From Leptotrichia buccalis C-1013-b (GTDB taxonomy: Bacteria > Fusobacteriota > Fusobacteriia > Fusobacteriales > Leptotrichiaceae), in contig NC_013192.1 in assembly GCF_000023905.1 (NCBI RefSeq), positions 1,612,001 through 1,676,000 of the forward strand: a DNA stretch of 64,000 bases. The letters are read 5' to 3'. Both the position numbers and the translations under genes were made by a program. The notes below the pieces were generated by a model. That model made no database searches. It was not told the DNA's origin and saw only the letters and a list, made by a program, of their open reading frames with translations. Of this stretch, positions 39,980 through 62,026 are shown piece after piece. Within the stretch, counting starts at the first letter, position 1. Each line of letters begins with the position of its first letter.

Positions 39980-40331
39980 AGTAGCTCCTTTTTAATATTT
40001 TTATTTCAAATAAATTTTGATTAATATACTTAATTATAGCATATATTTAAGAAATTTTATTCAAATTTCTCTGTGATATTATTATAGTTTTTTCTTTAAT
40101 TATATATATTTAATTTTTTTTGAAATTGTAGTAAAATAAATTATACAGCAAAAACTTTATTTTATGACTTTAAATTTATTATCCAAGAAAAAAATGATAA
40201 ATTACAAAACACAAAGAAATTAAAAAAGAGCAATTTTCCCTTTTTACGCTTAAATAAACACGTGATACGATAATAGAACGATAAAAAATTATGAGTATCA
40301 GATACAAAATATTAAGATGGAGGTTAATTTT
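39980..40331. other. Divergent intergenic region
   Basis: About 350 bases of AT-rich sequence. It holds a minus-strand -10-like TATAAT (40038-40033) for the esterase-like gene and a plus-strand TTGAAA/TATACA pair (40120-40125, 40142-40147; 16-base spacer) that may serve the next gene with a long leader. Nothing else is seen. Confidence 0.45.
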
Positions 40332-41087
40332 ATGAATGGTGAAATAGCACAAATATGTAATATTGTACTGGGTACTAAAAGTGCTTTAAAAAAAAGAAGC
40401 AGAATTAGATATAAACCTATATATTATGAAAAAAAAGCTACATTCATATTTTTTAATAACAAAAAATATAAGGCTAAAAGTGTTGAGGAATGGTTTGATT
40501 ATTGTATTGATAGAGGATTACAAAATATTAAGTTCTTAATTCCTCTACCTATAAAAGATAGTAATTTTCTTAATTTTACTAATATAAGTCAAGCTAGTAT
40601 AGTCTGCTTTTTTGACAATAAATTAGTTACTTATTTTACTCCAAAATGGGAAGATTACAATAATGAATGGTACATTATTTACACAGAACATGAATGGGAA
40701 CCTCCTCTAAAAGCAAAACCTAAATTTTATGATAATACAGAAGATTTTAAAGATGTATTGAATAGAATAGCAATTTTAGCTGATAAAATTGATTTTCAAA
40801 ATTTTGGAAATATCTTTAGAAAAGCTATTAGTATTTTAAATGGCGAAGAGATTGAAAATATACAAAAAACTTTTTATGGAATATATTTTTCTGAATTACC
40901 CAAAATTAATAAACTCCTTTTTTATGCCTCAGATATTTCTGACGTTTTTGGCGGAATGGGTTCCTGGAATGACAGTCCTCCTTATTATGCACACGAAAAG
41001 GGGCTTGAAAGTAAATATGACAGTCTTACGGAAGAACTTTTGACACAAATTAGGCTTGCTCTTTTATATTCTGTAAATGAATGGTAA
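40332..41087 (+). CDS. Hypothetical protein, 251 aa, immunity-protein-like
   Basis: I do not recognise this family with confidence. The ATG at 40332 follows GGAGG by 8 bases. The protein is soluble, aromatic-rich (SVEEWFDYCIDRGLQ; EWEPPLKAKPKFYDN) and ends with FGGMGSWNDSPPYYAHEKG and LLTQIRLALLYSVNEW, a pattern reminiscent of small immunity proteins of contact-dependent toxin systems. No toxin stands next to it, so this is weak. Its base composition is more AT-rich than the amidohydrolase downstream. An orphan immunity gene or a gene acquired alone are possible readings. Confidence 0.7.
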   Translation: MNGEIAQICNIVLGTKSALKKRSRIRYKPIYYEKKATFIFFNNKKYKAKSVEEWFDYCIDRGLQNIKFLIPLPIKDSNFLNFTNISQASIVCFFDNKLVTYFTPKWEDYNNEWYIIYTEHEWEPPLKAKPKFYDNTEDFKDVLNRIAILADKIDFQNFGNIFRKAISILNGEEIENIQKTFYGIYFSELPKINKLLFYASDISDVFGGMGSWNDSPPYYAHEKGLESKYDSLTEELLTQIRLALLYSVNEW

Positions 41088-43062: not shown

Positions 43063-44487
43063 ATGAATAAAATAAAAAATAATTATGAAGTTGGGCAAAA
43101 ACTGGAAATTGAAATAGAAAAAATAGTGTTTGGTGGAGAAGGACTTGGAAGAGTTGATGGATTTGCAGTATTTGTACCGATGAGTGTGCCAGGAGATAAA
43201 TTGGAAGTGAAAATTATTTCGGTGAAAAAGTCGTATGCAAGAGGGCTTATAACTAGGATAATTGAACCATCAAAGGACAGGATTGAGGATTTGTCCAAAA
43301 TTAGTTTTGAGGATTTTGATGGCTGTGATTTTGGAATGCTTAAATATGAGAAACAGCTTGAATATAAGGATAAGATGCTTGAAGAAGTGTTGACAAAGAT
43401 TGCTGAAATTGATTTGAAAAAGGTAAAAATTAGCAAAATTATTGGAAGTGATAAAAAAATTAATTATAGAAACAAGACGGCTGAGCCATTTTTCAAAAAG
43501 AATGGGATTATTCAGACGGGATTTTATTCAAGAAAGTCCCACAATGTGTTTTCAGCTAAAGAAAGTCTTCTAAAGTCAGAAATTGCCAAAATAATTATTG
43601 ATAAATTTTTGCAGAAAGTAAATAGTTTTGCAGGTACAAAAAAGGAATTTAAAGTTTTTAACGAAGTGAATAATACTGGATTTTTGAAGCAGATAATGAT
43701 TAGAAATAATGAAAAAGATGAAGTTATGATAGTTGTTGTCGTAAATAAAAATTCGCAGTATAATCAGCTTTCAAAAGTACTTGAAGAAATGTATGATGAA
43801 AATGACTGCATAAAATCAATCTATATTTCTGTAAAAACTGAACAGAATAATGTAATTTTAGGTAAAAATGTCCATTTATTTGGAAGCCAGTATTTGGAAG
43901 AGGAAATGGAAGGATTAAAATTCAAGATTTATCCAAATTCATTTTTCCAAATTAATAAAAAACAGGCACTGAAACTTTACGATGCTGCAATAAACTTTTT
44001 GAATGAAGAAAATAAAAATATTGATAAAATCTATGAAAAAACAGTAATTGACGCATTTTCAGGGACTGGAACAATTGCGATGATGCTTTCAAAAAACATA
44101 AAAAAGGTTATCGGAATTGAAAGTATCGAAAGTTCAACACTTGCTGCAAAACTGACTTCTTATGAAAACTCCATTCAAAATGTAGAATTTGTAAATGGAA
44201 AAGTTGAGAAGGAACTCCCAAAAATTTTGAAGAGAGAAGATGTCGGAGCAATAGTTTTTGACCCGCCAAGACGAGGAATCGAAGAGTCAGCATTAAAGAG
44301 TGTTGTAAAGAACAAAATTGAAAAAATTGTCTATATTTCTTGCAATCCTGCCACTTTTGCACGAGATGTGAAGATTTTGGCTGAAAATGGATATGTACTA
44401 AGGAAAGTTGCTCCTGTGGATATGTTCCCGCAGACTGGGCATATTGAAGTAGTGGGGATGATACAAAGAATCACACCCCTTAAGTAG
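43063..44487 (+). CDS. TrmA/RlmD-family RNA (uracil-5-)-methyltransferase
   Basis: A 474-residue SAM-dependent methyltransferase that makes 5-methyluridine in rRNA or tRNA. It has an N-terminal TRAM domain (EKIVFGGEGLGRVDGFAVFV), and a C-terminal Rossmann fold with DAFSGTGTIAMMLS, FDPPRRGIEESAL, and YISCNPATFARDVKIL holding the nucleophilic cysteine. The TRAM domain and length match RlmCD/RumA-type 23S rRNA enzymes. Exact position modified is not readable. It is separated from mcrB by 76 bases. Confidence 0.94.
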   Translation: MNKIKNNYEVGQKLEIEIEKIVFGGEGLGRVDGFAVFVPMSVPGDKLEVKIISVKKSYARGLITRIIEPSKDRIEDLSKISFEDFDGCDFGMLKYEKQLEYKDKMLEEVLTKIAEIDLKKVKISKIIGSDKKINYRNKTAEPFFKKNGIIQTGFYSRKSHNVFSAKESLLKSEIAKIIIDKFLQKVNSFAGTKKEFKVFNEVNNTGFLKQIMIRNNEKDEVMIVVVVNKNSQYNQLSKVLEEMYDENDCIKSIYISVKTEQNNVILGKNVHLFGSQYLEEEMEGLKFKIYPNSFFQINKKQALKLYDAAINFLNEENKNIDKIYEKTVIDAFSGTGTIAMMLSKNIKKVIGIESIESSTLAAKLTSYENSIQNVEFVNGKVEKELPKILKREDVGAIVFDPPRRGIEESALKSVVKNKIEKIVYISCNPATFARDVKILAENGYVLRKVAPVDMFPQTGHIEVVGMIQRITPLK

Positions 44488-44563
44488 ATATAGAATTGTA
44501 ATTTTAATAGATTTTAAATTACAATGTAAGATAAGCTATAATAACAATAAGGAGAAAAATTAA

Positions 44564-46675
44564 GTGGAAAATGTATTGCGTGAATTTGTAGAAAAATTTA
44601 TTAATGAATATTCAAAGGAGAAAAACAAATCTCTTAGTAACAAAGATTTAGGAGATTTTATAAGAAAAGAGGTTCCTGAAAAAATTTTTAAGACAGGTAT
44701 TATAAAAAAAGAGGAATATATTGTGAAAGGCAGTGTTGGACAAGGAAATTCGGCTGCTGTACCTTGGGTTGCTATTTATGATCGAAAAATAACTACTTCT
44801 GTACAAAAAGGGGAATACATTGTATATTTACTTTCAGAAAAGGACAAAACACTTTATTTAACTTTTAATCAAGGATGTACTGAACTCAAAAAACAATATC
44901 ATAATAAAACTGAAACTATTAAAAAATTAAAAGAGAATAGTAGTTTTATTCAAGAAAAAATCGAATCAAGAGGATTTTCTAAAGAAAATATAAAATTACT
45001 GTGTCAAAAAACAACATCTGAAATACCTGAAATGTATGAGGCAGGTTGTATTTTTTCGAAAGCCTATAATATTCAAAATTTACCTGAAGAGTTTGAATTA
45101 AGGGAAGATTTGAAAAATATGATAGATATTTATAAAGAATTTGTTTCTTTAAAAAATTCTATATCAAAAAATAAACTAGATAATGAAAGAGGCGGTAAAA
45201 ATATGAAGAATAGTAGTTTGAATACAATCTTATATGGTCCTCCAGGAACTGGAAAAACTTATAACACTGTCAATTACGCAGTGGCAATATGCGAAAGTAA
45301 AAATATTGAAGATGTGCAATCTGAAGAGTATGAAAAAGTATTGCATAGATATAATGAATTGAAAAAAGAAGGTCGAATTGCATTTACTACATTTCATCAA
45401 TCTTACGGATATGAGGAATTTATTGAAGGTATCAGTCCAATAATTGTTGAAGACAATAATGATGATAGTTCTGGAAATATAGAGTATAAAATAAAATCTG
45501 GAATTTTTAAATCTTTCTGTGAAGAAACAGAAAAAATAACAATAAAAAATGATAAATTTTTTATTGATAAAGATGCAACAATTTGGAAAGTTACAGTTGG
45601 ATCTAAAGTACAAAATGATTGTTTTGTAAATAATTATATTAGGATAGGCTTTGGAATTCATGATAAAGGTGCAAAAGAATTTGTAAACCAAATAAATGAA
45701 GGTGATATTATTATTACAACAGATGGTAATAGAAAGAATATTAGAGGTATTGCAATAGCTACTTCAGACGAAGCTTATAAACTTGAAAATACTGAATCAG
45801 ATAGTACTACTAGAGATGTAATTTGGCTTGTTCGTGATATAAACGATGATGTGACAATTTTAAATGGAAATAAGTGGTTGCAGAGAAAGACTGTATCAAG
45901 ATTACCAAACATGAACATCAAGGATTTGATGGAATTTGCAATCAAAAAAAATGTTGAATTGAAGGAAACTCATATTGAAAAAAATAATGGATCTTATGTA
46001 TTTATTATAGATGAAATTAACAGAGGTAATATTTCTAAAATTTTTGGTGAATTGATTACTCTTATTGAAAATACCAAACGTAAAGGAATGATTGAAGAGA
46101 TGTCAACAATTCTTCCTTACTCTGGCAATCTTTTTAGTGTGCCTTCTAATGTTTATATTTTAGGAACAATGAATACTGCCGATCGTTCAATCGCTCTTAT
46201 GGATACAGCTCTTCGTAGAAGATTTCAGTTTGTTGAAATGATCCCAGATACGAAAGTCCTCAGAGATATTGGTGCTGATAAGGTTGATGATCTTGATGTT
46301 GCTGCTATGTTGGAAAAAATTAACGAACGTATTACATTCCTTTATGATAGAGAGCATACAATTGGACATGCATTTTTTACCAAGCTTAAGGATGATCCAA
46401 CAATCGAGACATTAGCTTCTATTTTTGAAAAATCTATAATTCCACTTTTACAAGAATATTTCTATGAAGATTATCAAAAAATACAGTTAGTTTTAGGTGA
46501 TAATGGCAAAGTAGATGCTTCAACAAAATTTATTAAAGATGAAGAAGTAAAAGTGAAGAATATATTTAAGGAGAATAAGGAGAATGCTGTTGATGTTGTA
46601 GATCTTCCAGAGAAGAAATATACTATTAATAAAGAAGCTTTTCTTAATATTGAAAGTTATAAACAGATTCTTTAG
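44564..46675 (+). CDS. mcrB: McrB-type AAA+ GTPase with DUF3578-like N-terminus and internal insert
   Basis: A 703-residue motor subunit of a modification-dependent restriction system, starting at GTG behind GGAG. Residues 1-190 resemble the MrcB/DUF3578 specificity domain (VKGSVGQGNSAAVPWVAIYD). The AAA+ module has Walker A YGPPGTGKT (224-232), then an inserted block of about 140 residues (325-465, with IWKVTVGSKVQND and INEGDIIITTDGNRKNIRGI) resembling a small beta-barrel/EVE-like fold, then Walker B FIIDEINRGN (480-489) and the McrB signature GTMNTADRSIALMDTALRRRF. It pairs with mcrC 14 bases downstream. The insert's role is inferred to be a second modified-base reader. Confidence 0.93.
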   Translation: MENVLREFVEKFINEYSKEKNKSLSNKDLGDFIRKEVPEKIFKTGIIKKEEYIVKGSVGQGNSAAVPWVAIYDRKITTSVQKGEYIVYLLSEKDKTLYLTFNQGCTELKKQYHNKTETIKKLKENSSFIQEKIESRGFSKENIKLLCQKTTSEIPEMYEAGCIFSKAYNIQNLPEEFELREDLKNMIDIYKEFVSLKNSISKNKLDNERGGKNMKNSSLNTILYGPPGTGKTYNTVNYAVAICESKNIEDVQSEEYEKVLHRYNELKKEGRIAFTTFHQSYGYEEFIEGISPIIVEDNNDDSSGNIEYKIKSGIFKSFCEETEKITIKNDKFFIDKDATIWKVTVGSKVQNDCFVNNYIRIGFGIHDKGAKEFVNQINEGDIIITTDGNRKNIRGIAIATSDEAYKLENTESDSTTRDVIWLVRDINDDVTILNGNKWLQRKTVSRLPNMNIKDLMEFAIKKNVELKETHIEKNNGSYVFIIDEINRGNISKIFGELITLIENTKRKGMIEEMSTILPYSGNLFSVPSNVYILGTMNTADRSIALMDTALRRRFQFVEMIPDTKVLRDIGADKVDDLDVAAMLEKINERITFLYDREHTIGHAFFTKLKDDPTIETLASIFEKSIIPLLQEYFYEDYQKIQLVLGDNGKVDASTKFIKDEEVKVKNIFKENKENAVDVVDLPEKKYTINKEAFLNIESYKQIL

Positions 46676-46689
46676 AAAGCGGTAATTTA

Positions 46690-47988
46690 ATGAATAAATT
46701 TTTAGAAGTAAAAGAGTTTGATATAATCACTGGAAATCCTAATTTTAAAAATGATGAAAAATACAAATATTTAGATACTGTAGCTTTTGAAAATCTAATT
46801 GAATTTATTCATCAATTTACTGCAAATGAAGAAGTTGCAGATGTACTTGATTTCATGAGAATTTCATATAAACGTAATATTGGGAATATTGTGTCAATTA
46901 AAAACTATGTAGGGTTAATTCAAATGAAAAATGGATATCAAATACAAATTCTTCCTAAAATAAGTTTTACAAATAGTGATGATTCAGAAAATAGGAATAC
47001 TAAAAAAATTTTTCTCAATATGTTAAGAAGTATGAGAGATTTTCCAAGTAAAGTATTTAATAACTCCAATATTCAAGTTGAGCGTATGAATCTTTATGAA
47101 ATATTTATTAATATGTATTTACAAGAAATAAGGCGATTAATAAAAATAGGAATTAAATCAGATTATATTTTCAAAGAAGATAATTTAAACTATTATAAAG
47201 GGAAGTTATTGACATCGCAGCATTTTAAAATAAACTTAGTACATAAAGAACGTTTTTATGTTGCCTATGATGAATTTAATCCTAATAGAGTTGAAAATAA
47301 GTTAATTAAGGCTACATTGTTAAAATTACAAAAACTTACAACAAGTGCAGAAAATTCAAAAGAAATAAGGCAGTTATTAGTTTTTTTTGAAATAATAGAT
47401 GCTTCAATGAATTATACAGCCGACTTTTCAAAGGTTAGAATAAATAGAAGTAATAGGGATTATGAAATGATTATGCAATGGTCAAAAGTATTTTTACTAA
47501 ATAAATCTTTTACAACTTTTTCTGGAAATAATAATTCTAGAGCATTATTATTTTCAATGGAAAAAGTATATGAAAGTTATGTAGCTAAACATTTGAAAAA
47601 AATACTAGGGGAAGACGGTTGGAATGTATCAAGTCAAGATAGAGGTTACTATTTATTTACTAAACCAAGACTACAATTCGCTTTAATACCTGATATTGTT
47701 TGCAAGCGTGGAGAACGAACTATTATTATGGATACCAAATGGAAGAAACTCGTTAATAACGAACGTATTAATTACGGTATTTCTCAAAGTGATATGTATC
47801 AAATGTATGCTTATTCAAAAAAATATAAAGCCTCAGAAATATGGCTTTTATACCCTTTGAATGATGAAATGAAAGAACATTCAGAAATTTCATTTAATTC
47901 GGGTGATGGAACAACTGTAAATATTTATTTTGTAGATTTGGAAAATATTGAAAGCTCGCTAGAAGTTTTGAGAGACAAGATTAGGTAA
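46690..47988 (+). CDS. mcrC: McrC-family endonuclease subunit
   Basis: A 432-residue nuclease partner of McrB. The N-terminal part has the McrC pattern (YVGLIQMKNGYQIQILPKIS); the C-terminal part carries a PD-(D/E)xK site, seen as LIPDIVCKRGERTIIMDTKWK, with the Asp, Asp and Lys in the right spacing. SDMYQMYAYSKKYKASEIWL follows. It cuts DNA when McrB translocates from a modified site. It lies 14 bases after mcrB and is the last gene of that unit. Confidence 0.94.
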   Translation: MNKFLEVKEFDIITGNPNFKNDEKYKYLDTVAFENLIEFIHQFTANEEVADVLDFMRISYKRNIGNIVSIKNYVGLIQMKNGYQIQILPKISFTNSDDSENRNTKKIFLNMLRSMRDFPSKVFNNSNIQVERMNLYEIFINMYLQEIRRLIKIGIKSDYIFKEDNLNYYKGKLLTSQHFKINLVHKERFYVAYDEFNPNRVENKLIKATLLKLQKLTTSAENSKEIRQLLVFFEIIDASMNYTADFSKVRINRSNRDYEMIMQWSKVFLLNKSFTTFSGNNNSRALLFSMEKVYESYVAKHLKKILGEDGWNVSSQDRGYYLFTKPRLQFALIPDIVCKRGERTIIMDTKWKKLVNNERINYGISQSDMYQMYAYSKKYKASEIWLLYPLNDEMKEHSEISFNSGDGTTVNIYFVDLENIESSLEVLRDKIR

Positions 47989-48177
47989 TTTTAAATTTAT
48001 ATAAGCAAAAGATAAATTTACAGAGACATTACGATAGAATTTAACGAGAAGATGTTTTTGATTAAGTTAATCATCTGTTCAATCTGAACTCTGTGTCTAT
48101 AAAGTTTTTTCTGATGTAAAGAAAAAAATATATTGGAATAAAAAAATAAAAAAATCAAGAAAAGGAAGTTGATATTT

Positions 48178-58795: not shown

Positions 58796-61700
58796 TTAGA
58801 ATGAAACACCAAGTCCCACACCAACATGAGCATTTTTATCTTTCGTATCATATCCACCATTTACTGTGAAATTAAAGTTTCCTGCTTCAAATCCTACTTT
58901 TACGTCGCTCTTGAAGTTTCCACGTCTTTCGTATTTTGCACCTTTTAAGTTAATTTTAGTGCTTGTGTTCGCAAATTTAGCTTCGTTTGCCTTGCTTTCA
59001 ACTTTTCCTAGTTCATGTTCATAGCCAAGTCCTAAAGATGCTTTGAATTTAGTGTTTTCTGTAATTGGAGCGGAATATCCAACTTCAACTCCTGCAGATG
59101 GTTTTACAGAATAGTAATTGCTTCCTTTAACTTCCATATTTAAAGTTCCGTCTTTTTCCTTAATTTTTGAAAATTTACCATAACCAAGTTTTAGACCAGC
59201 GTAAGGTTTAACTGTAACATTTTCTCCAACTTGGAAAGTTTTTCCTAATTCGTTCTTAATTGCAAATCCGTAAGCATTGTAGTTAGCCTTGTTTTCATAA
59301 ATATTATTTCCGATTACAAATCTTCTCTTCATATCGTTTTTGGAAACAAATCCATCTCCGCTTAAAGTCCATTCAAGATTATTCAAGTCAAATGTCTTGT
59401 AAGCACCTAATTTAAACATTGTTACATTTTCTTTTGATTTCCCACTGTCTTTAAATTTGAAGTTGTTAATAACTGTTCCGGCATAAATTCCCTGTTTTGC
59501 ATCAGCATTATTGAATAAGTATGAAATTCCGTAAGCTGAACTGTTTGAATCTGCTAATTCTGGTGTTCTTGCCTCATGTTTATCCCTGTTAAAGAAAGTA
59601 GAAACATGATGTCCAGATTTATCAGCATTTTCTTTTTGTAAAGCAGAAAGTTTATTGTCTAAAATATCGTCAGTCTGTGCAATTCTTTGTTGAACATTGA
59701 TATATTGATTTCCATTAATTTCACGGTAAGTTCTTGTTAATGCTTTTCTGTCGCTCAATGTATTTAAGTAGTTGAATACTTGCTTATCTTTTGAATCTGC
59801 ACTAGTTCCAGTATATTTTTCATCCAGTCCATTAGCTACTTCTGTAGAAGTTTCACTATCTGCAAATTTCGCATAAGATTGTTTTTTCAAAGTAACTTTT
59901 TCTACTTTGTTATTTTTAATTTCTGAATCAGCTTCCCATACTAAAGAACCTGTTTTTACATTCCAGTTTGCAATACCACTTGATTGAATAGATCTGTTAA
60001 ATGGATTAAGTACATCATTTCCAACTGTAACTTCAGTAGCGTTAGTTTTTTCAGTAGCTTCAGCTCCGATTAACAAGTCAGCACTTTGTAATCCTAAGTT
60101 TGAAAGACCTTCAATTGGTTTTGTTTTTCCTAATGTGTCTACGTAAACTCCCAAATCCCCATTAATTGGTTTTGTTTTATTTGAGAGAACTTTAATAGTT
60201 CTTGTGTTGTCTACACGGTCTCTTACGGCACCGCCACTAACTTCTATATCTCCATAATTCTTAATTATTCCGCCAGCAACAACAATTCCCGCACCGCCAG
60301 CAGATTCGATGTGGATTTTACCATTATTTGTGAATTCAGAATCTTTTCCTACAACTACACCAATTGCATCTTTTGGAGTTCCAACAGTTGTTATCGTACC
60401 GCTGTTTGTACCTTTAGAACCATTTGCCAAGTACATTCCGATACCGCCATCTTTAGTGATGCTGATAGTTCCTTTGTTTTCTAAAGTGTTTCCGTTGATT
60501 CCTGCCATACCGATTGAATCTTTACCGATTTCTATAATTCCGTTGTTTATCATTTTTGCATTTGGATTATCGCTGTACATTCCCATACTTGGGTTGTTTC
60601 TATCAGATGAATCACCTATTCTGATTTTTCCAGTAGAACCAAAATATTTTTGATTTTCTACATTATAGGCACCATCTCCGCCAGCATAGATTCCGATTGA
60701 CTTATCTCCGTAAAGATTGATTTCCCCAACACTTCCAATTACATCTTGTGGAGTATCTGAAGCTGCAGGGTCTTTCTTCTGGTTACGGACATTTGCCCAC
60801 ATTCCTATTACATTGCCTGCTGTACTTTCAATTTTTCCATTATTTAAATTTGTAATGAATCCTTTGTTATCAAAGTAAGGCTTGTCCATATACATTCCTG
60901 TTGAATTTTCCCCAAGGAGAATATCTCCATCGTTTCTTGCAGAGTTGTGCGGAATAGGAGCAGAAGGTCCAAGCAGTCCATAGTCAAATTCAGATTCTGC
61001 ACTCCAGTAAATTGCAGCTGAATTTTTTCCAACTGAGATTGTTCCAAGGTTATTAAAATTTGACGCAGTACCGTATGCTCCGATTGAGTTGCTACCTTTC
61101 ATATTGATAGTACCACGGTTATAGTTCATATCGTTTGGAACAAATTCATATTCAAATCCATACAATCCTTTAATTCCAATTTGGTTGTCTTTTGTTCCAG
61201 TAATTGTTTTACCAGAATTAATAGTGAAAGTAGAATTTGTAACATCTACTTTATTATACAAGTCGTTAGGATCATCCAAGTTTACATCTTTGTCTACAAA
61301 AAGTCTGGAATTATCAAATTTAACCAGTTTATAGTCAGTACCATTAATTGTTGGTCTTTGATTTGCAGGAATTTTGGCAAGAAGATCTGAAACATCAGTT
61401 TTAGATAATTCTACCTCAACACCTTTAAGAACGAACAAATATGAATTAGGTTCCATATTGAATGTCAATTTTTCAGCATTGTGTATAAGTTTTGTCAAGT
61501 AATGTTTAACGGCTTCCTGAGGATCTGTAAAAAAGTGTGTGTTTCCACTGTAAACGCTATTTCCTTCAAAAAATGCCATTGCTCCTCCGCCTGCTTTTAC
61601 ATCCATTGTTGTTGGAACAGCTATAGTAAGCGGTTTTGTAGCTGAACGATTCAAGTAAAATCCAACTTCTCTGTCTTTAACTTCATAATGATTTCTACTG

Positions 61701-62026
61701 GCAGTTTTAGGTATGTCCAGTTTTTCTCCAGCAATGTTATATGCAAAAATGTCTAATTCTGAATTAGGAATCGCACCAAGATTTACTTTTTGGAATCTTG
61801 CGTCAGTACTTACTATAGGAGAAGTTGGGTTTGACGGATTAGTATTACCAGCATTTCCTCCTCCGTTTCCGTTTGATCCTCCTGGATTGTTAGGCGCAAT
61901 AGGTGCAACTGGTGTTGTTGGGTTTTTACCAATAATTTTATCCCTTATATCCTTAATTCCTTCTGTACAGCTTACAATTGCTAATAGTGATATTACAAAT
62001 AACATTAATTTTTTGTTTTTTCTCAT
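58796..62026 (-). CDS. Autotransporter with lipoprotein-type signal
   Basis: A 1076-residue type Va-like autotransporter. The signal MRKNKKLMLFVISLLAIVSC ends in a lipobox cysteine instead of a plain signal-peptidase site. A Pro/Gly/Asn-rich linker (about 35-75) precedes a long passenger with fusobacterial beta-helix repeats such as NNGIIEIGKDSIGMAGINGN and NNGKIHIESAGGAGIVVAGG (about 260-640). A spacer leads to a C-terminal beta-barrel (about 830-1076) that ends VGVGLGVSF, with the terminal aromatic residue needed for BAM insertion. It is likely a surface adhesin. It is preceded by a terminator-like hairpin. Confidence 0.93.
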   Translation of the reverse strand: MRKNKKLMLFVISLLAIVSCTEGIKDIRDKIIGKNPTTPVAPIAPNNPGGSNGNGGGNAGNTNPSNPTSPIVSTDARFQKVNLGAIPNSELDIFAYNIAGEKLDIPKTASRNHYEVKDREVGFYLNRSATKPLTIAVPTTMDVKAGGGAMAFFEGNSVYSGNTHFFTDPQEAVKHYLTKLIHNAEKLTFNMEPNSYLFVLKGVEVELSKTDVSDLLAKIPANQRPTINGTDYKLVKFDNSRLFVDKDVNLDDPNDLYNKVDVTNSTFTINSGKTITGTKDNQIGIKGLYGFEYEFVPNDMNYNRGTINMKGSNSIGAYGTASNFNNLGTISVGKNSAAIYWSAESEFDYGLLGPSAPIPHNSARNDGDILLGENSTGMYMDKPYFDNKGFITNLNNGKIESTAGNVIGMWANVRNQKKDPAASDTPQDVIGSVGEINLYGDKSIGIYAGGDGAYNVENQKYFGSTGKIRIGDSSDRNNPSMGMYSDNPNAKMINNGIIEIGKDSIGMAGINGNTLENKGTISITKDGGIGMYLANGSKGTNSGTITTVGTPKDAIGVVVGKDSEFTNNGKIHIESAGGAGIVVAGGIIKNYGDIEVSGGAVRDRVDNTRTIKVLSNKTKPINGDLGVYVDTLGKTKPIEGLSNLGLQSADLLIGAEATEKTNATEVTVGNDVLNPFNRSIQSSGIANWNVKTGSLVWEADSEIKNNKVEKVTLKKQSYAKFADSETSTEVANGLDEKYTGTSADSKDKQVFNYLNTLSDRKALTRTYREINGNQYINVQQRIAQTDDILDNKLSALQKENADKSGHHVSTFFNRDKHEARTPELADSNSSAYGISYLFNNADAKQGIYAGTVINNFKFKDSGKSKENVTMFKLGAYKTFDLNNLEWTLSGDGFVSKNDMKRRFVIGNNIYENKANYNAYGFAIKNELGKTFQVGENVTVKPYAGLKLGYGKFSKIKEKDGTLNMEVKGSNYYSVKPSAGVEVGYSAPITENTKFKASLGLGYEHELGKVESKANEAKFANTSTKINLKGAKYERRGNFKSDVKVGFEAGNFNFTVNGGYDTKDKNAHVGVGLGVSF

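What the first reader, a model, noticed from the sequence alone, without database searches (positions are those of the whole stretch)
44564..47988. McrBC variant with a DUF3578-like reader plus a second domain inside the motor
McrB has a DUF3578-type N-terminus and an additional 140-residue block between Walker A and Walker B that looks like a small beta-barrel of the EVE/PUA sort. Two potential modified-base readers in one motor are not the textbook arrangement and may broaden or gate target choice. McrC retains its nuclease site.
Basis: partly seen in the sequence, partly recalled or inferred. Interest (0 to 1): 0.6.

Follow-up and report, generated by a model that had tools for sequence, protein, structure and literature searches.

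The report
Restriction motor with swappable built-in reader
A bacterial enzyme that destroys chemically marked foreign DNA carries, besides its usual front-end sensor, a second sensor-like domain built into the middle of its motor, and among relatives this inner domain is swapped between nearly identical motors, as a target-choosing part would be.

Summary
McrB (44564-46675, 703 aa) has an N-terminal DUF3578/MrcB_N domain (E 3e-57), an intact GTPase motor, and about 157 extra residues (320-476) between Walker A and Walker B. McrC (46690-47988) is adjacent with its nuclease site intact. AlphaFold2 predicts the insert as a separate domain (pLDDT 92, pTM 0.88). Foldseek places it with EVE and YTH modified-base readers (probability 1.0, TM 0.50-0.60). 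The arrangement is not unique: 77 of 81 related motors carry an insert of this family, mostly in Firmicutes. New here: insert similarity is unrelated to motor or McrC similarity (rho 0.02-0.15; motor C-half against McrC, 0.80), and tree tests reject shared history in both directions. Near-identical motors carry 12-24%-identical inserts, an unrelated insert, or none. The same domain family occurs N-terminal to other McrB motors and fused to Mrr nucleases. Most likely it is a second, exchangeable modified-base reader; ligand and logic are unknown. Bell et al. 2024 already reported that McrB GTPase domains often contain insertions likely encoding specificity domains, so the kind is known. DUF3578 plus embedded EVE-like domain was found only here.

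The parts
44564..46675 (+). mcrB gene, 703 aa, GTG start
   Evidence: ORF; McrB motor matches to 6ut5, 6ut3 and 6hz4 at E 1e-34 to 1e-54; Foldseek of the motor+insert model to TgMcrB E 2e-23
44600..45145 (+). N-terminal DUF3578/MrcB_N reader domain, residues 13-194
   Evidence: Pfam PF12102 E 2.9e-57, 193.7 bits against cut-off 25
45236..45259 (+). Walker A GPPGTGKT, residues 225-232
   Evidence: sequence
45386..45493 (+). helix 2 with the canonical McrB beta-hairpin insert, about residues 275-310 (FHQSYGYEEFIEGI, then strands 290-294 and 306-310)
   Evidence: sequence and model strands; present separately from the EVE-like insert
45521..45991 (+). motor-embedded insert, residues 320-476, between helix 2 and beta3 (Walker B)
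   Evidence: alignment to 80 homologues; E. coli McrB has about 4 residues here
45581..45949 (+). EVE/YTH-like domain core, residues 340-462 (strand-helix-strand-helix then four strands, then a helix)
   Evidence: AlphaFold2 pLDDT 92.3, pTM 0.88; Foldseek to EVE/YTH structures, probability 1.0
45998..46024 (+). Walker B VFIIDEINR, residues 479-487
   Evidence: sequence
46169..46189 (+). NxxD GTPase signature MNTADRS, residues 536-542
   Evidence: sequence
46690..47988 (+). mcrC gene, 432 aa; PD-(D/E)xK nuclease with PDI (335) and DTK (348-350) intact
   Evidence: Pfam PF10117 E 2.1e-90; catalytic residues 78/78 conserved
44457..48150 (.). acquired cassette: homology to 8 congeners stops at 44456-44457 and resumes at 48123-48160
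   Evidence: blastn of empty sites in congeners

Best explanation
This is a Type IV (modification-dependent) McrBC restriction system whose McrB bears two reader modules: an N-terminal DUF3578 domain and an EVE/YTH-like domain spliced into the GTPase motor between helix 2 and the Walker B strand. The embedded domain most likely binds a flipped-out modified base in phage DNA, as EVE and YTH domains do. It probably adds a second recognition input to the hexamer; GTP-driven McrB and the McrC nuclease then cut as in known McrBC. Shown by computation: both domains, the intact motor and nuclease, the EVE/YTH-like fold, exchange of the insert among motors, and use of the same domain family as a reader in other restriction proteins. 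Inferred: base binding, the nature of the base, and position on the outer rim of the ring (loop on the far side of the beta-sheet from the pore loops, by AAA+ topology). Also inferred is independent (either/or) rather than joint recognition, since some relatives have only the embedded domain and one has only an N-terminal part.
For: Insert model pLDDT 92.3; Foldseek top hits are EVE proteins PH1033 and MJECL36, YTHDF2 and the EVE domain of the 5mC/5hmC endonuclease VcaM4I, probability 1.0. Profile comparison with EVE relatives gives 82% probability. The same HMM finds the domain N-terminal to McrB motors in 16 proteins and in 13 motor-less ORFs, of which all eight of 340-412 aa scanned carry an Mrr_cat nuclease. 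Insert identity does not track motor or McrC identity: rho 0.02-0.15, against 0.80 for motor C-half versus McrC. Window and L020: motor C-part 83%, insert 12% identical. L011 and L020: motor 91%, McrC 89%, insert 24%, with DNA identity falling to about 40-50% over the insert and recovering to 80-90% after it. AU tests: the window's motor clade is rejected by insert data (p 1.3e-5); the window's insert clade is rejected by motor+McrC data (p 3.1e-5). L078 has the motor with no insert; L066, L079 and L080 have an apparently unrelated insert of about 115 aa at the same site. Positions 363 and 405, at or near the expected base pocket, are aromatic in 95% and 88% of 77 sequences.
Against: No binding data. 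Foldseek TM scores are moderate (0.50-0.60), identity to solved readers is 8-16%, and no insert reaches a Pfam EVE cut-off. The pocket mapping rests on fold topology and one profile alignment, not a superposition. AU tests on three individual two-row pairs with very divergent inserts were not significant (p 0.38-0.50). High divergence could also come from fast evolution of a protein-binding domain.
Confidence: 0.68

Rival explanations
1. The insert is a structural or regulatory part of the motor (for example a hexamer brace, a GTPase gate or an McrC docking element) that has lost reader function.
For: It lies inside the AAA+ core, and in the model strands 325-328 and 470-473 flank it and may form a stem to the motor. 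McrC is adjacent in 79 of 80 loci.
Against: One close relative lacks it altogether (L078) and three have an apparently unrelated insert at the site. Insert similarity is unrelated to McrC similarity (rho 0.02), which a McrC or motor contact surface would not give. The helix-2 hairpin, a known AAA+ element, is separately present.
Confidence: 0.15
2. The insert senses something other than a modified base in phage DNA: RNA, a free nucleotide or a phage protein, as some PUA/YTH domains bind RNA.
For: YTH domains are best known as m6A RNA readers, and other McrBC branches (CoCoNuTs) are predicted to target RNA (PMC11090510).
Against: The same domain family is fused to Mrr-type nucleases, the architecture of modified-DNA enzymes. 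This McrC keeps a DNA-type PD-(D/E)xK site, and the NxxD signature places the motor outside the NxD CoCoNuT branch.
Confidence: 0.12
3. The apparent exchange is only rapid divergent evolution of one vertically inherited insert.
For: Inserts are 34% identical on average while motors are 62%, and pairs with very divergent inserts do not reject a shared clade.
Against: Some inserts are as similar as, or more similar than, their motors while McrC is only 39-44% identical (L027 or L029 with L065, L073, L049 and others). AU tests reject the window's motor clade on insert data and the window's insert clade on motor data. Changes in identity coincide with the insert boundaries.
Confidence: 0.12

Closest known systems
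E. coli K-12 McrBC
   Same: N-terminal DUF3578 reader, AAA+ GTPase with NxxD signature, adjacent McrC PD-(D/E)xK nuclease
   Different: No domain between helix 2 and Walker B in E. coli McrB (about 4 residues); the present McrB adds about 157 residues there
Thermococcus gammatolerans McrB (YTH-McrB)
   Same: YTH/EVE-superfamily reader attached to an McrB motor; best motor match in the PDB
   Different: There the YTH domain is N-terminal and reads 6mA (PMC7680126); here the EVE/YTH-like domain is inside the motor and the N-terminus is DUF3578
McrB GTPase domains with inserts in the Bell et al. 2024 census (PMC11090510)
   Same: The census states that GTPase domains frequently contain insertions likely encoding specificity domains
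   Different: The text read gives no fold, position, exchange pattern or DUF3578+EVE combination for these inserts
VcaM4I EVE-HNH endonuclease
   Same: EVE domain that flips 5mC/5hmC; among the structural matches of the insert
   Different: EVE is N-terminal to an HNH nuclease, with no motor (PMC7897488)
PcdA of Staphylococcus
   Same: McrB-family motor with EVE domains
   Different: Two N-terminal EVE domains, degenerate motor, a cell-division role and no McrC (PMC10602043)
Type I restriction specificity subunit HsdS (from general knowledge)
   Same: Works alike in evolution: recognition modules exchanged within a conserved frame
   Different: Unrelated proteins; no membership claimed

Membership tests
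McrBC Type IV restriction system | AAA+ McrB GTPase with Walker A/B and Nx(x)D signature | tested here: met
   GPPGTGKT, VFIIDEINR, MNTAD; matches to McrB structures
McrBC Type IV restriction system | Adjacent McrC with PD-(D/E)xK nuclease residues | tested here: met
   PF10117 E 2.1e-90; D335, D348, K350 conserved in 78/78
McrBC Type IV restriction system | Cleavage of modified, not unmodified, DNA with GTP | not testable with these tools
   needs purified proteins or phage assays
DUF3578/ADAM (MrcB_N) reader | Sequence match above the Pfam cut-off over the full domain | tested here: met
   PF12102 193.7 bits against cut-off 25, profile 3-182 of 183
EVE/YTH (PUA-like) superfamily, for the insert | strand-helix-strand-helix-four-strand barrel | tested here: met
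   AlphaFold2 element order; Foldseek probability 1.0, E 7.5e-5 at best
EVE family PF01878 (strict) | Pfam match above cut-off | tested here: not met
   Window insert: no EVE match; only 5 of 72 inserts match weakly, best E 0.021. EVE-like, not filed as PF01878
EVE/YTH readers | Aromatic base pocket | tested here: inconclusive
   Positions 363 and 405 aromatic in 95% and 88%; no coordinates available for superposition
EVE/YTH readers | Binding of a modified base | not testable with these tools
   needs binding assays

The most novel reading that the evidence does not exclude
The loop between helix 2 and Walker B of this McrB branch is a docking site for interchangeable reader cassettes, so one McrBC enzyme carries two independently evolving specificity modules, and changing only the embedded one retargets the motor to a different modified base.
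Probability: 0.4. Interest if true: 0.72.

Novelty: new variant of a known kind. Interest (0 to 1): 0.52.

Why it matters
How McrBC readers pass the presence of a modified base to the motor is unresolved, and the solved structures place readers at the N-terminus. A reader fixed inside the motor core gives a short, defined connection to Walker B. It also offers natural experiments: same motor with insert, with another insert, and without. Insert swaps between 80-90%-identical motors would show directly whether specificity can be retargeted, and would help predict which phage base modifications each system restricts.

Tried and rejected
Pfam, NCBIfam and PADLOC did not name the insert. A PDB sequence search with the insert profile gave only noise plus one weak hit to an EVE-like protein (1zce, E 1.2). 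Assignment to a known AAA+ element was rejected because the helix-2 hairpin is separate. The insert is not a phage gene (no phage match) and only a few plasmid AAA ATPases match weakly. A second copy of the domain N-terminal in the same proteins was sought with the insert HMM and not found. DUF3578 together with the embedded domain was sought: 1 of 52 N-termini in this branch has MrcB_N, and none of six further embedded examples has it. AU tests on three two-row pairs were uninformative, and two tests on motor data did not finish.

Full report
Observation. The window holds an mcrB-mcrC pair at 44564-46675 and 46690-47988. McrB begins with a full-length DUF3578/MrcB_N domain (residues 13-194, E 2.9e-57) and continues into an McrB GTPase motor: Walker A 225-232, Walker B 479-487, NxxD signature 536-540. 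Phmmer alignments to E. coli and T. gammatolerans McrB break at this point. Where E. coli McrB has about 4 residues between the end of helix 2 and Walker B, and T. gammatolerans about 66, this protein has about 158. McrC has the PDI...DTK nuclease residues, invariant in 78 of 78 aligned relatives.

The insert is real and old. A scan of genome contigs returned 80 relatives, chiefly Firmicutes, most matching the query continuously from Walker A to the C-terminus. Of 81 aligned motors including the window, 77 carry an insert of the same family, with W341, G380, R417 and W421 invariant. McrC is next door in 79 of 80 loci; the other contig is only 3,008 bases long. Four seed peptides of the scan lie outside the insert and two inside, so the 77/81 figure is somewhat biased upward. 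An independent profile search of 391 genomes of one class found the domain family in 30 genomes, embedded in a motor in a minority of these.

Fold. AlphaFold2 on the insert with 72 aligned sequences gives pLDDT 92.3 and pTM 0.88, with the order strand-helix-strand-helix-four strands-helix, the order described for EVE barrels (PMC7641849). Foldseek against the PDB returns EVE proteins (PH1033, MJECL36), YTH domains and the EVE domain of VcaM4I, all with probability 1.0, TM mostly 0.50-0.60 and 8-16% identity. In the motor+insert model (pLDDT 89.5) the standard helix-2 beta-hairpin of McrB (strands 290-294 and 306-310) and helix 314-322 come before the insert, and the motor matches McrB structures at E 2e-23. 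The insert is therefore not a known AAA+ element. Sequence alone barely sees this: no Pfam cut-off is reached, and a profile comparison with six EVE sequences gives 82% probability over 58 columns.

The same domain is a reader elsewhere. An HMM of the insert finds relatives in other proteins. Sixteen lie N-terminal to an McrB motor. Ten lie between Walker A and Walker B, including one (L130) at a different loop, before the HQSY-like segment of a divergent motor, which suggests a separate embedding event. Thirteen lie in ORFs with no motor, and all eight of those of 340-412 aa that were scanned have a C-terminal Mrr_cat nuclease. The domain family is thus repeatedly attached to nucleases and motors of restriction enzymes, which is the main homology argument for a reader role.

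The insert is exchanged between motors. Pairwise insert identity is almost unrelated to that of the motor (rho 0.10-0.15) or McrC (rho 0.02), whereas motor C-part and McrC agree (rho 0.80). The window's motor C-part is 83% identical to L020 and 85% to L011, but the inserts are 12% and 24% identical. L011 and L020 share 91% of the motor C-part and 89% of McrC but 24% of the insert. Along the genes, DNA identity falls from about 75-80% to 40-50% over the insert and returns to 80-90%. Trees of insert and of motor+McrC differ. Insert data reject the window's motor clade (window, L016, L011, L020; p-AU 1.3e-5) and a second motor clade (p 7e-5). Motor+McrC data reject the window's insert clade of eight (p 3.1e-5). 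Each clade was named from the other data set. Three two-row pairs with very divergent inserts were not rejected. L078 has a 76-81%-identical motor and no insert, and L066, L079 and L080 hold a different insert of about 115 aa. A rigid structural part would not be expected to behave so; a specificity module would.

N-termini. Relatives' N-terminal parts range from about 10 to 944 residues. None of 51 others scanned matches MrcB_N, nor do six further embedded examples, so DUF3578 with an embedded EVE-like domain is rare or unique in this sample. L026, L035, L046 and L067 have almost no N-terminal part in the McrB ORF and no detectable homologue of it in the next genes upstream, so the embedded domain may be their only reader within McrB. 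L007 pairs its insert with an N-terminal part that looks EVE-like by eye (not confirmed by Pfam).

Locus. The genome is a 2.47 Mb single contig. The 12 congeners lack this McrB. In eight of them the flanking genes are close together, homology stopping at 44456-44457 and resuming at 48123-48160, so the pair was most likely gained as a cassette of about 3.7 kb. GC is 26.7% in the cassette against 29.9% in the window.

Mechanism. Shown by computation: the domains, the intact motor and nuclease, the fold class, the exchange, and the domain family's use in other restriction proteins. Inferred: the insert flips and reads a modified base. By AAA+ topology the helix 2 to beta3 loop lies on the edge of the sheet opposite the pore loops, so six embedded domains would probably decorate the rim. 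In T. gammatolerans McrB, density attributed to N-terminal readers was seen at the outer edge (PMC7680126). Because some relatives appear to have only the embedded domain, and L078 only the N-terminal part, independent (either/or) recognition is favoured over strict two-key recognition, at low confidence.

Known or new. Bell et al. 2024 (PMC11090510) already state that McrB GTPase domains frequently contain insertions likely encoding specificity domains, and EVE-McrB fusions are common (PMC7641849). I file this as a new variant of a known kind.

Noticed in passing
L066:6373-6723, L079:6412-6756, L080:6292-6639: Three relatives carry a different insert of about 115 aa at the same motor site, sharing WLFDAR and FRV motifs with each other and not matched by the EVE-like HMM; possibly a second kind of embedded domain.
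   Followed up: partly
L130:571-2757: A divergent McrB (729 aa) with an EVE-like domain embedded after Walker A but before the HQSY-like segment, i.e. at a different motor loop, suggesting independent embedding.
   Followed up: partly
L078:442-2646: Coprococcus MAG McrB with an N-terminus like L007 and a 76-81%-identical motor but no insert (21 residues instead of about 157): a natural no-insert control.
   Followed up: partly
L016 5373-5633 and L017 4083-5015: The N-terminal part of McrB appears to be in a separate, overlapping upstream ORF in these two loci (split gene or frameshift).
   Followed up: no
window 40317-41087 (+): 256-aa ORF with no Pfam match, not far upstream of the cassette.
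   Followed up: no
window 58796-62026 (-): 1076-aa autotransporter (PF03797 beta-domain at residues 832-1056).
   Followed up: no
G000:C1:203949-204788: A second partial copy (68% identical, one stop) in the same genome of the C-terminal half of the RNA methyltransferase-like gene that flanks the cassette at 43063-44487.
   Followed up: no
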